Source: a virus. Taken from it: a stretch of DNA of 44,559 nt. The first letter of the stretch is position 1, and each line of letters opens with the position of its first letter. Shown piece after piece: positions 1 through 44,559 of the stretch. Under the pieces are notes generated by a model. The model ran no database searches. It was given only the letters and a program-made list of their open reading frames with translations, and was not told where the DNA came from. Position numbers and translations under genes: made by a program. The DNA lies in IMG/VR virus record IMGVR_UViG_3300033145_000897, positions 1 to 44,559 of that record. One strand, 5' to 3'.

Positions 1-114
1 TCAAAATTCTGCATGGAAAATGTCAAGACGTTCGAGCCGAACAGTGAAAGAGTGTCATGTTACAGTGAAGGCGTAAGAAGTGTGATTTTGGAGATTCGAA
101 GATTGTTGGCGGAC
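1..114. repeat. Terminal direct repeat, left copy
   Basis: Positions 1-114 are identical to 44446-44559. An open reading frame runs without a break across the join from 44356 to 165. This is what a circular contig cut at an arbitrary point looks like. A true short terminal repeat is possible but less likely, because the repeat lies inside a gene. Confidence 0.97.
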
Positions 115-19456: not shown

Positions 19457-19481
19457 TTTTCATCATTTCCTCTTCCGAAAG

Positions 19482-19520
19482 GCTGCGTTGTTGGCATGGG
19501 TCAACTTCGCAGCTTTTTTA
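19482..19520. terminator. Terminator between convergent transcripts
   Basis: GCTGCG (19482-19487) pairs with CGCAGC (19508-19513), with an inner TTG/CAA helix, followed on the plus strand by six T. It ends the rightward late transcript and may also act on the leftward transcript that finishes at 19522, though that side lacks a good U run. Confidence 0.85.
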
Positions 19521-25505: not shown

Positions 25506-25579
25506 TAGGCGGGGCAGGAATCGAACCTGCGACTTCCGGGCCCGTGCCCGGCGCTCTCCCATTACTGAGCTACCCGCCC
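25506..25579 (-). tRNA. tRNA-like gene with abnormal anticodon arm
   Basis: On the minus strand: acceptor GGGCGGG/CCCGCCT, TA, D arm GCTC...GAGC with the usual A-G-GGGA loop, and a perfect T arm GCAGG-TTCGATT-CCTGC. The 74-base length is normal and CCA is not encoded. The anticodon arm is not normal: CCGGG and CCCGG enclose only six bases, CACGGG, and can pair further (CCGGGC/GCCCGG) leaving ACGG. There is no U33. If read in the usual register the triplet would be CGG (Pro) or ACG (Arg), but neither is supported. It may be a non-decoding tRNA mimic or a decayed tRNA. It lies within the leftward operon, 6 bases after the upstream gene. Confidence 0.8.
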
Positions 25580-35375: not shown

Positions 35376-37163
35376 ATGAAAAAGTTAACGACAAAACTAA
35401 TTGTGGCCGTTGTGATTATTATGGCGGTAGGGGGTTGTCCTGGTGGCGGCTCGTCGGTCGTAAGATTTGTTCACGGGATGGACATTGTATTATATAACAC
35501 TGGCGGCGAAGGGGATGAGGGCCTGGACGTATGGTACACGGATGGAGATGATGGGGTTTACGGAGCGGGGTTTGGCTATGTATGTCGTATAGAAAACGAG
35601 GGCATTCCTTTGGCTGGTATTCGGGTGGAGTGCCAAATCGTTTCTCATCACGACCCGCTGGATATTGGGGAGGATATATGGGACGAATACACCCCGAACG
35701 GAGAGAGGTATGGATATGTGCATTCTGTCCCGGAGGGCAGTTGGGATCGCAACGATGGAGTGGCAATAACTTATACAAACGCCGTGGGTGAGTGTGTGTT
35801 CCTGATAGGCTTAGGTGATCCTGATGTAGGCTTTGGAGGGCAAGACGTTGGTTACTCGTGGCCGGATGGCTCTGATGGCGTGTCATCGCTTGTTCAGGTG
35901 AGATTTAGAATTATGAAAGCATCGGGCGATATCGTGTCTGATTGTTATATGGTCTTTTTCAGGTCGCAGTATCAGGACTTCTGGGAGCCTTACGGGGGGA
36001 TTTATGGGGCTTCTTTTTCTTCTTTGAATCCGTGGGATGGTTGGGCTAAAAGTTCAGACAAAAGTGGCGGTGGCGGCGAACCCAACCTGGGGCCGGTGGG
36101 AGAATTTGATTTGCCCGAAGTGGAGTTGATGGAAAAATGCCCGTATCCCGGACGACTGTTTGATAAAAGCGGCGCGCCTTCGCCGGATTGGATTGTGGTT
36201 TATGACTCGAATTGTGTTTTTATCCCCGGCCCTCTCGTTATCGACCCGAATTGCCCGTGGATTGTTGACCCGAATTGTATCTGGCCCGATGTTGTTAATC
36301 CGATTTTTGACCCGAATTGCCCCGGCTATATAATAGACCCCGATTGCCCTGACTACCCCGACCCGAACTGTCCGTGGATCCCAGATTATGATTGTTGGGT
36401 TACAGAGCCGAATTGCTATATCCTTGACCCTGACTGGCCGTGGATCGCAGGGCCGATGATTCCCGACCCGAATTGTTATACATACTACGACCCGAATGCC
36501 ATCATACCAATAATATCAGAATATCCAACATCGGGAGAGGGCTGGGAATATAACTCTGGCGTTTGGCGAAAGTGGTATCCTTCCGCTGGCTGGTGGTATG
36601 TGAATGGTGTGGTGGCCACATGGATTTCAGATATTGACAATCCAGACGATGTTATACTGGCAATGGATTTGGCCCAGCCTTATGTGTCCTTGTTAATGTT
36701 TGAAGTGGATGAAATAGATGACGTGCGAACATTCCGGCATACCGGCATGGTAATAGCCAGGGACAGCTTGGGGCGGAAAGTATCCGAGCTACCTGTAGAA
36801 TTGTATGTTTGGGGCATTTCGGGGAATCAAGTTTATTTGGCTACGAACTTTATTTTGCCGATGGAGTTTCCTGAGCAGCAAGGTGTGTATTTTGATAGCT
36901 GGGGAAGTTCTTATGCCGCTATTTATGTCCCTGAAGGCGGGCATTTGGAAGTTGTTAAAGATAGTTTCTTTGGCGACTTCAATTATGATGGCTATGTGGA
37001 CAATGCCGATTTTGGTGCGTTTGCCGTCCGATGGAATGATGATGTGTTTGGTTTGTATGACCCTAATTTTGCGTACGATTTATTGTACGATGCGGACTAT
37101 GACGGACAGACGGACATATCGGATTTAATGTACCTTTCAGATAATTGGTTGGAGATAAGATGA
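35376..37163 (+). CDS. Secreted lipoprotein with Asp-Pro-Asn-Cys repeats and dockerin-like end
   Basis: 595 residues. KKLTTKLIVAVVIIMAVGGC is a lipoprotein signal with cleavage before Cys (lipobox VGGC). Residues about 40-230 are a Gly/Asp-rich domain. Residues about 285-375 hold about nine DPN(C) repeats (DPNCPWIVDPNCIWPDV, DPNCPGYIIDPDCP and so on). The last 65 residues have two calcium-loop units, GDFNYDGYVDNADFGAFAVR and DADYDGQTDISDLMYLSDNW, the dockerin type I pattern frequent in Planctomycetota. The gene has no virion motif and looks host-derived. A role in surface modification, superinfection exclusion or host attachment is possible but unproven. Confidence 0.8.
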   Translation: MKKLTTKLIVAVVIIMAVGGCPGGGSSVVRFVHGMDIVLYNTGGEGDEGLDVWYTDGDDGVYGAGFGYVCRIENEGIPLAGIRVECQIVSHHDPLDIGEDIWDEYTPNGERYGYVHSVPEGSWDRNDGVAITYTNAVGECVFLIGLGDPDVGFGGQDVGYSWPDGSDGVSSLVQVRFRIMKASGDIVSDCYMVFFRSQYQDFWEPYGGIYGASFSSLNPWDGWAKSSDKSGGGGEPNLGPVGEFDLPEVELMEKCPYPGRLFDKSGAPSPDWIVVYDSNCVFIPGPLVIDPNCPWIVDPNCIWPDVVNPIFDPNCPGYIIDPDCPDYPDPNCPWIPDYDCWVTEPNCYILDPDWPWIAGPMIPDPNCYTYYDPNAIIPIISEYPTSGEGWEYNSGVWRKWYPSAGWWYVNGVVATWISDIDNPDDVILAMDLAQPYVSLLMFEVDEIDDVRTFRHTGMVIARDSLGRKVSELPVELYVWGISGNQVYLATNFILPMEFPEQQGVYFDSWGSSYAAIYVPEGGHLEVVKDSFFGDFNYDGYVDNADFGAFAVRWNDDVFGLYDPNFAYDLLYDADYDGQTDISDLMYLSDNWLEIR

Positions 37164-37644: not shown

Positions 37645-38010
37645 ATGATGAAGGATAGAATAGACAAGCTAATAGATTATGTGGTGAGCCTTTTGCTTGG
37701 CGTTACAATCGGCGTGGTGATTATGGGATTTTGGGTATGCCCGACAGACAATCCTTCTGTTGATTATTATGCCACGTTTGAAAACGGCGACACAGTAAAG
37801 GTGGACAGCATAACCGCAGTGCCAATTTTGTCTGTGGAGCAGATAGGCAGAATGTGGCCGGAGTATTATGCCGAAACAACGGTTAATTTTGAAGGCAAAG
37901 AAATAACCTTGCGGTCAAAACCGTTCCTGTTTTGTGATAATCCCGAACTCGAAGGCAGCTATGCGGGCCGGAATGTTTATTGGTTGAAAGGGGGAAGAAA
38001 GAAAAAATAA
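37645..38010 (+). CDS. Membrane-anchored small protein
   Basis: 121 residues, ribosome site AAAGGAG. One membrane segment at residues 10-30 (DYVVSLLLGVTIGVVIMGFW), then a hydrophilic domain that would face the periplasm or the cytoplasm, with NPELEGSYAGRNVYW near the end. It closes the accessory operon before the structured RNA at 38047. Role unknown; spanin-like and immunity-type roles cannot be separated. Confidence 0.65.
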   Translation: MMKDRIDKLIDYVVSLLLGVTIGVVIMGFWVCPTDNPSVDYYATFENGDTVKVDSITAVPILSVEQIGRMWPEYYAETTVNFEGKEITLRSKPFLFCDNPELEGSYAGRNVYWLKGGRKKK

Positions 38011-38022
38011 ATAATTTTGTGC

Positions 38023-38050
38023 TTGACATTTAAGTGTAAAGTGATAGGTT
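38023..38050 (+). promoter_or_regulatory. Rightward promoter candidate at the structured RNA
   Basis: TTGACA (38023-38028), 16 bases, TAGGTT (38045-38050). The -10 overlaps the first stem of the RNA; a start at about 38056 would leave that stem out of a transcript from this promoter, so the RNA may instead be read from an upstream start. Confidence 0.5.
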
Positions 38051-38168
38051 ACGGACGTGCATTCGCTAAAACCAAACAATTTGTTGAAAAAAAACGGCCT
38101 TGAGACCTACATAGCGGGTGCACACTCAAGGTTGTTTTTTTTGGTTCAGTGGGGTGGCGTCCGTAACC
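38047..38168 (+). ncRNA. Pseudoknotted structured RNA
   Basis: GGTTACGGACG (38047-38057) pairs with CGTCCGTAACC (38158-38168), 11 bp. Inside, AAAAAAAACGGCCTTGAG (38087-38104) pairs with CTCAAGGTTGTTTTTTTT (38125-38142), 18 bp including two G-U pairs, with a 20-base apical loop. That loop's GCGGGTGCAC (38114-38123) is complementary to GTGCATTCGC (38057-38066), ten positions including two U-G pairs, which gives a pseudoknot. AACC/GGTT (38070-38073 with 38143-38146) adds another helix. The wobble pairs work only if the plus strand is the RNA. No plausible gene covers this part. Confidence 0.75.
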
Positions 38169-38172
38169 AAAA

Positions 38173-38381
38173 GCTGCCAAGGTCATTCCGGCCTGAAGTG
38201 TCGTACCATCCACTCGATAAGGGCTCGCAGCCTTTCCCTGCCTGCAAAAGGGCATTATTTGCGCCGTTTTTGGCTTTTTGCGTTTAGTGCCTTTTTGCTC
38301 GTAGGGATAGTGTGGATTGAAGGTAGCCCACGGAAATTGTGCATTACTAATGCAGGGAAGCGGTGAATAGAAAGGGAAAGA
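38173..38381 (+). other. Rest of the structured intergenic region
   Basis: After the pseudoknotted RNA, GCTGC/GCAGC (38173-38177 with 38227-38231) encloses AGGTC/GGCCT (38180-38194, one wobble) and AGTG/CACT (38197-38214), a possible three-way junction. GCATT/AATGC (38341-38353) is a small hairpin. T-rich runs near 38266-38295 could end transcription. Two open frames here (38118-38366 plus and 38049-38420 minus) look random. It may belong to the same RNA. Confidence 0.45.
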
Positions 38382-38591
38382 GTGGAAACAATCAACGAAT
38401 ATCAAGCAAGAAAGCGACAAGAGATAGAGAAAGTAGCACAGAGGCGCACAGGGACGGGGATAGCTTGCCCCAATTGCAGTCCGTCTGTTGAAATGTTCAA
38501 CCCTACACCCCGTATAATTCTAACCTCTTATCCACCCCAAATATGGGCGAAGTGTCCTCAGTGCCAGCATCTTACCACTGTATTGGCCTAA
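38382..38591 (+). CDS. Zinc-ribbon small protein, GTG start
   Basis: 69 residues from GTG 38382, preceded by AAAGGGAAAGA. INEYQARKRQEIEKVAQRRT is a helix, then GTGIACPNC and WAKCPQCQHLTTV form a zinc ribbon. The middle LTSYPPQI is typical of a common small phage protein of this type. Unknown function. Confidence 0.72.
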   Translation: METINEYQARKRQEIEKVAQRRTGTGIACPNCSPSVEMFNPTPRIILTSYPPQIWAKCPQCQHLTTVLA

Positions 38592-38593
38592 AA

Positions 38594-39079
38594 ATGAAAG
38601 AACAACAGATATTTGACCTCTGGAATAGCTTCAAGGGCCACAAGAACCCCCTGGGAAAGCCTCGCAAGAGCTGGTGGTTCTGTGATTGCATGGACGCAGA
38701 CATGAAAAAGACCATACGCGGGGCGTGTAGGGACTTTGGTGGGCAAGAGAGAGTGCTACAGGCGATTGTAAACTTTCACCTGATCTGGTATGATAAGGCG
38801 TATGTATGGAGCAGGACATGGCCGTTGGAGACTTTCTTAACGATATCGAAGCCGTACAACCGGAAAGTGCGCCAGATACGCCGGTTCTTGCCAGGCAATT
38901 TTATAGCAGAGGATTATCTAACGAACGCCGAGAAGACGCGCAGAGCAAACAAGGAGAAGGTTCAGGCCGCAACCGTCGTAGAACAGCGGAATATAAAAAT
39001 GATGAAGGAAGTGCCGGAGGCGCCTAAGCACGATTGGCGCAAAATGAGAGACGATATAGCAAAAATAAGGGATAATTAA
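38594..39079 (+). CDS. Putative replication-initiation-like protein
   Basis: 161 residues from ATG 38594, two bases after the previous stop. KEQQIFDLWNSFKGHKNPLG at the start and the pattern VLQAIVNFHLIWYDKAYVWS RTW..FL (residues about 60-85) resemble parts of phage replisome organisers of the O/DnaD-like group, where an N(Y)A..Y....W.L..FL motif is usual. The C-terminus is basic and helical (EKTRRANKEKVQAATVVEQR). As no other replication protein is present, this is the best candidate to recruit host replication, but the similarity is short. Confidence 0.5.
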   Translation: MKEQQIFDLWNSFKGHKNPLGKPRKSWWFCDCMDADMKKTIRGACRDFGGQERVLQAIVNFHLIWYDKAYVWSRTWPLETFLTISKPYNRKVRQIRRFLPGNFIAEDYLTNAEKTRRANKEKVQAATVVEQRNIKMMKEVPEAPKHDWRKMRDDIAKIRDN

Positions 39080-44355: not shown

Positions 44356-44559
44356 ATGACCGAAGATGAAAGACAAGAACTGATTTCCGATTGCAAAACG
44401 GTATTCATAAAATCCGATGCGGGCGTGAATGTTTTGCAATACATATCAAAATTCTGCATGGAAAATGTCAAGACGTTCGAGCCGAACAGTGAAAGAGTGT
44501 CATGTTACAGTGAAGGCGTAAGAAGTGTGATTTTGGAGATTCGAAGATTGTTGGCGGAC
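44356..44559 (+). CDS. Bbp19-like head-region protein (5' part; continues at position 1)
   Basis: Begins at ATG 44356 and is open to the window end; the same reading frame continues at position 115 through 165 once the terminal repeat is joined. The total protein is 84 residues starting MTEDERQELISDCKTVFIKS. See the entry at 1-165 for role and reasons. Confidence 0.75.
   Translation, partial: MTEDERQELISDCKTVFIKSDAGVNVLQYISKFCMENVKTFEPNSERVSCYSEGVRSVILEIRRLLAD
44446..44559. repeat. Terminal direct repeat, right copy
   Basis: Identical to positions 1-114; see the left copy. It shows that the assembly closes on itself. Confidence 0.97.

What the first reader, a model, noticed from the sequence alone, without database searches (positions are those of the whole stretch)
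38047..38168. New pseudoknotted noncoding RNA candidate
An 11-bp perfect closing stem, an 18-bp hairpin and a complementary match of ten positions between the hairpin loop and the 5' segment (38057-38066 with 38114-38123) coexist in 122 bases. Four G-U pairs occur in two separate helices and would be lost on the other strand, so the plus strand is the RNA. Chance is a poor explanation for three nested long matches. Known phage RNAs such as packaging RNA, riboregulators and xrRNA-like pseudoknots have this level of order, but I recognise none of them.
Basis: seen in the sequence. Interest (0 to 1): 0.88.

Follow-up and report, generated by a model that had tools for sequence, protein, structure and literature searches.

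The report
Pseudoknotted terminator-like phage RNA
A planctomycete-type phage carries, in a swappable cargo spot, a short RNA element with a likely own promoter whose first 12 bases can pair with the loop of a terminator hairpin, which looks like a built-in transcription switch but has no known relatives to confirm it.

Summary
38047-57/38158-68 is a perfect 11-bp stem. 38087-104/38125-142 is an 18-bp hairpin with two G-U pairs. The loop-to-5' match is 12 bp with two G-U pairs (38057-68 with 38112-123). Chance does not explain the three together (0 of 200 simulated windows). The four wobbles and the fold z-scores (-7.0 against -4.4) point to the plus strand.

The reading needs changing. The hairpin is A8-CGGCCTTGAG...CTCAAGGTTG-T8, the form of an intrinsic terminator; the only covariance-model hit in 397 Phycisphaerae genomes was an ordinary A8/T8 terminator behind a ferredoxin-like gene. 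A promoter-like site (TTGACA-16-TAGGTT, extended -10) predicts +1 at 38057, the first pseudoknot base. For an RNA starting there, the 5'-end/loop helix outcompetes the terminator stem by about 4 kcal/mol until the U-tract is out.

I favour a short transcription unit or attenuator, with the 11-bp stem forming only in RNAs that begin upstream and read through. The element lies in variable cargo: two syntenic relatives have other sequence there. No homolog turned up in Rfam, phages, plasmids, viral contigs or planctomycete genome samples. Covariation, the decisive test, could not be done.

The parts
38003..38593 (.). Variable cargo segment holding the element; replaced by unrelated sequence in both relatives
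   Evidence: L009: homology stops at window 38002 and resumes at 38597; L003: unrelated genes after the 121-aa gene
38023..38050 (+). Promoter-like site: TTGACA (38023-38028), 16-nt spacer, TG-A-TAGGTT extended -10 (38045-38050); predicted +1 at 38057
   Evidence: resembles other extended -10 sites of this phage and its relatives (TTGACA-17-TGtTATrgT); consensus match only, the -10 is 3 of 6
38047..38057 (+). 5' arm of the 11-bp closing stem; overlaps the -10 and ends at the predicted +1
38057..38068 (+). 5' strand of the 12-bp pseudoknot helix (GUGCAUUCGCUA)
38087..38104 (+). 5' arm of the terminator-like hairpin (A8 CGGCCTTGAG)
38112..38123 (+). Hairpin-loop strand of the pseudoknot (UAGCGGGUGCAC)
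38125..38142 (+). 3' arm of the hairpin (CTCAAGGTTG) running into the T8 tract 38135-38142; predicted transcript end
   Evidence: same A8/T8 layout as a host-class terminator
38143..38157 (+). GGUUCAGUGGGGUGG: alternative partner of the 5' segment in read-through RNA
   Evidence: weak duplex, -7.7 kcal/mol; part of the nested MFE structure
38158..38168 (+). 3' arm of the 11-bp closing stem, 15 bases past the T8 tract
38173..38329 (+). Second, weaker structured stretch (z -2.4 for 38169-38380); may instead hold a tiny ORF; not claimed as part of the RNA
38382..38591 (+). 69-aa zinc-ribbon-like ORF (GTG start), next gene downstream; possible regulated gene

Best explanation
It is a short, promoter-proximal transcription unit carried as phage cargo. 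Transcription starts at about 38057 and mostly ends in the T8 tract at 38135-38142, giving an RNA of about 86 nt, with some read-through towards the zinc-ribbon gene at 38382. The first 12 bases of the RNA pair with the loop of its own terminator. This helix can form before the terminator stem is complete, so it hinders or delays termination (an attenuator) and, in the finished RNA, ties the 5' end into a pseudoknot. In RNAs that begin further upstream and read through, the 11-bp stem can close and the 5' segment can take a nested alternative fold instead. Shown: base-pairing potential, strand bias, non-randomness, cargo location and computed energies. Inferred: promoter, start, end, pseudoknot formation and the regulatory effect.
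For: Pairing and strand bias. Not chance. The hairpin has bidirectional A8/T8 terminator form; a similar AAAAAAAACGGC...GCCGTTTTTTTT hairpin follows a ferredoxin-like gene in a Phycisphaerae genome, and one further such hairpin was found in 30 genomes of one order. Promoter-like site with +1 exactly at the first pseudoknot base. With a start at 38057 and RNA exposed to 38134, the 5'-end/loop helix is at -19.7 against -15.7 kcal/mol for the terminator stem; with starts at 38011 or 38047 the two are about equal. Located in a segment that relatives replace with other sequence.
Against: No expression data. The -10 matches only 3 of 6 consensus bases, and sites of similar score occur inside genes. 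A 20-base terminator loop is large, although ACCU/GGGU can pair inside it. The perfect 11-bp outer stem (9 in 6000 by chance) is not needed by this model except in read-through RNA. No homologs, hence no covariation.
Confidence: 0.45

Rival explanations
1. A self-contained pseudoknotted noncoding RNA of about 122 nt (38047-38168), possibly part of a longer one to about 38330, made from an upstream promoter or by processing, with the 11-bp stem closing it.
For: Three mutually compatible helices including the closing stem; z -7.0 for the 122-mer and -4.95 for 38047-38380.
Against: The T8 tract after the hairpin would end most transcripts before the 3' arm; the promoter-like site places the start 10 nt inside the stem; for the full 122-mer the nested fold (-53.1) is, by a rough hand estimate, at least as good as closing stem plus pseudoknot; the second domain alone is only z -2.4; no relatives.
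Confidence: 0.27
2. An ordinary terminator of the upstream operon (121-aa gene ending at 38010); the loop match and outer stem are incidental and no separate RNA function exists.
For: A8/T8 hairpin about 85 bases after the stop codon of 37645-38010; such terminators exist in Phycisphaerae.
Against: Given the hairpin, the loop match and outer stem each occur in about 1 to 1.5 of 1000 shuffles, so both together are unlikely even after looking at many terminators; L009 and L003 do not carry this hairpin after the same gene.
Confidence: 0.18
3. A DNA-level element: the 11-bp inverted repeats flank an invertible or protein-bound segment, and the wobbles are decay of DNA repeats.
For: Perfect inverted repeats 100 bp apart, the left one overlapping the -10, and a terminator that reads in both directions.
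Against: No recombinase was found among the proteins scanned, though not every ORF was scanned; all four imperfect pairs are G-U in the plus-strand sense; no target-site duplication is visible in the flanks; no alternative orientation is on hand.
Confidence: 0.06

Closest known systems
Intrinsic (Rho-independent) terminators and transcription attenuators
   Same: GC-containing stem followed at once by eight T, with a competing RNA helix that can form before the terminator is complete
   Different: The competitor pairs with the terminator loop rather than with a stem arm and is the very 5' end of the predicted RNA; the loop is 20 bases
Phage small RNAs with their own promoter and terminator, and 'moron' cargo units (general knowledge)
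   Same: Promoter-like site, short noncoding stretch and terminator as a unit in a variable cargo position
   Different: No sequence or Rfam match; expression unproven
phi29 packaging RNA (pRNA)
   Same: Phage-encoded RNA of about 120 nt with a long closing helix (recalled, not tested); lies in the genome part that also holds terminase
   Different: No Rfam match, about 2 kb from the terminase gene, and absent at this place in closely related phages with the same terminase
Large ornate phage-associated RNAs GOLLD and ROOL (PMC12286853; motif survey PMC2864571)
   Same: Structured noncoding RNA found in phage or metagenome DNA
   Different: Far smaller here; no match to any Rfam model; single known occurrence
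Retron msr-msd RNA
   Same: Inverted repeats of about 11 bp closing an RNA that has an internal long hairpin
   Different: No reverse transcriptase found in the window or in the two relatives

Membership tests
Any Rfam 15 family | Score above the family's gathering threshold | tested here: not met
   no family at the gathering cut-off over 38047-38168; only two chance matches up to E 10, both outside it
Intrinsic terminator | GC-containing stem followed directly by a T-tract | tested here: met
   CGGCCTTGAG/CTCAAGGTTG followed by T8, preceded by A8
Intrinsic terminator | Short loop (3-8 bases) | tested here: not met
   20-base loop; not listed by the standard scan; an inner 4-bp ACCU/GGGU pairing would leave a 7-base loop. 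Typical rather than strictly required
Intrinsic terminator | Transcripts end in the T-tract | not testable with these tools
   needs 3'-end mapping
Conserved structured RNA family | Homologs with compensatory base changes | tested here: inconclusive
   no homolog found in phages, plasmids, viral contigs, or Phycisphaerae and Planctomycetota genome samples
Retron | Adjacent reverse transcriptase | tested here: not met
   no RVT_1 match in G000, G001 or G002
phi29 pRNA | Covariance-model match | tested here: not met
   Rfam scan
phi29 pRNA | Binding to connector/ATPase and a packaging role | not testable with these tools
   experiment needed; absence from the syntenic place in close relatives that share the terminase argues against it

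The most novel reading that the evidence does not exclude
A new class of self-attenuating phage RNA: the 5' end of the transcript doubles as an antiterminator by docking into the loop of its own terminator, so the switch works only for RNAs that start at the local promoter, while RNAs entering from upstream fold the segment into a closed nested domain and terminate or behave differently.
Probability: 0.15. Interest if true: 0.62.

Novelty: new variant of a known kind. Interest (0 to 1): 0.4.

Why it matters
Noncoding RNA cargo of phages is poorly catalogued because family-based searches miss single-copy elements. If the model holds, it adds a simple attenuation design (5' end paired with the terminator loop) that depends on where transcription starts, and it gives a compact test case for co-transcriptional pseudoknot folding in a phage lineage of Planctomycetota.

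Tried and rejected
Homolog hunts that found nothing: blastn against phages and plasmids; a 17-base exact pattern (two unrelated hits); both pseudoknot strands with free wobble positions and a variable gap (0); outer arms with a variable gap (0); relatives through terminase, connector, both flanking genes and the zinc-ribbon ORF and terminase in GTDB genome contigs (none); covariance model R1, built from this one sequence, in 38 + 397 + 392 genomes, overlapping samples, whose only hit was a plain terminator; blastn of the cargo segment in 397 genomes (one 37-base hit near a gene start, judged chance).

Retron rejected for lack of a reverse transcriptase. Coding explanation for 38049-38420 on the minus strand rejected: no family match and an unconvincing translation. 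Antisense targets within the genome: nothing that stands out from other long matches. A search for the same three-helix layout in relatives and prophage contigs found no equivalent.

Full report
WHAT IS THERE. The sequence features are as described. Outer stem: 38047-38057/38158-38168, 11 perfect pairs. There are no mismatches, and all wobbles fit the plus strand. The 122-mer folds at -53.1 kcal/mol, z -7.0; the minus strand reaches z -4.4. In 200 simulated windows nothing comparable arose. With the hairpin taken as given, the loop match and the outer stem still have shuffle frequencies of about 0.001 and 0.0015.

CONTEXT. The window is a virus record with a 114-base terminal direct repeat, so probably a complete genome. 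It encodes a terminase large subunit, a head-tail connector, a major head protein and tail tubular-type proteins, the layout of a podovirus. Terminase relatives at 44-46% identity occur in genomes of the class of a Phycisphaerae MAG, and a 595-aa secreted-looking protein has planctomycete-style dockerin-like repeats (judged by eye), so a Planctomycetota host is likely. Two relatives, L009 (connector 89% identical) and L003 (terminase 90%), share the gene order, but the segment 38003-38593 is replaced by other sequence in both. The element is therefore optional cargo. The GC content of the segment (0.457) equals that of the phage, so composition does not mark it as foreign.

TERMINATOR CHARACTER. 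The hairpin has A8 before and T8 after a 10-bp GC-containing stem and reads as a terminator on both strands. A covariance model of the 122-mer, searched in 397 Phycisphaerae genomes, hit only an A8-CGGC...GCCG-T8 hairpin behind a ferredoxin-like gene. At E 0.004 per genome that is no homolog, but it shows what such a hairpin ordinarily is. A stricter pattern found one more in 30 genomes of one order, so the exact form is not common.

PROMOTER AND START. TTGACA at 38023 with an extended -10 (TG-A-TAGGTT) 16 bases on predicts +1 at 38057. Other intergenic sites of this phage and its relatives share the TTGACA...TGtTATrgT layout. This one is weaker, and such scores also occur inside genes. The predicted +1 coincides with the first base of the 12-bp helix.

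ENERGETICS. Constrained folding of growing transcripts: from 38057, the 5'-end/loop helix is at -19.7 kcal/mol while the 10-bp terminator stem is at -15.7 when RNA to 38134 is out; the terminator wins only once the U-tract pairs with A8. From 38047 or 38011 the two are about equal at that point. The calculation covers nested states only; the joint pseudoknot is not scored by these tools. By hand, a one-base connector (38124) between the 12-bp helix and the 3' hairpin arm rules out the classical coaxial H-type layout, but a layout in which the seven-base 5' part of the loop spans the 12-bp helix appears possible. In the 122-mer the 5' segment can pair instead with 38143-38157, and the nested fold is the MFE.

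INTERPRETATION. The simplest account that uses the most features is a short transcription unit whose 5' end pairs with its own terminator loop, acting as an attenuator in front of the zinc-ribbon gene at 38382 or as a small RNA. No homolog was found anywhere searched, so selection on the pairs cannot be shown, and the covariance model rested on one sequence, which limits its reach.

BEYOND THE COORDINATES. 38173-38329 also folds, but only at z -2.4 by itself, and a 35-codon TTG-start frame at 38262 with an SD-like AAAAGGG could encode a small membrane protein, so it is not claimed as part of the RNA.

Noticed in passing
window 25506-25579 (-): tRNA gene (Rfam 55 bits) with an odd anticodon loop: ARAGORN could name no amino acid and read a two-base anticodon.
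   Followed up: no
window 1-114 and 44446-44559: Identical 114-base direct repeat at the two ends of the record; suggests a complete, circularly permuted or terminally repeated genome.
   Followed up: partly
L009 4716-5404: The same cargo site in the relative holds a 143-aa ORF, an AT-rich cluster of TTAAGAT-like repeats and a perfect TTGACA-16-TATAAT promoter on the minus strand at about 5228.
   Followed up: partly
window 32870 (+), L022 9697 (+), L020 6845 (-): CCTCCTCCG followed by a GC-rich terminator-like hairpin in noncoding gaps at different places of three related phages; on the opposite strand it reads as a strong Shine-Dalgarno before an ATG.
   Followed up: partly
window 38262-38366 (+): Possible 35-aa membrane peptide MRRFWLFAFSAFLLVGIVWIEGSPRKLCITNAGKR with TTG start and an AAAAGGG upstream, inside the second folded stretch.
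   Followed up: no
window 19480-19520 (+), L020 6802 (-), L023 17212 (+): Strong, similar terminator hairpin in all three phages (GCTGCG/GCCGTG stem, T6); in the window it follows the tail gene block.
   Followed up: no
window 35376-37163 (+): 595-aa lipoprotein-like ORF with many DPNC repeats and planctomycete-style dockerin-like repeats; no Pfam or PHROG match.
   Followed up: no
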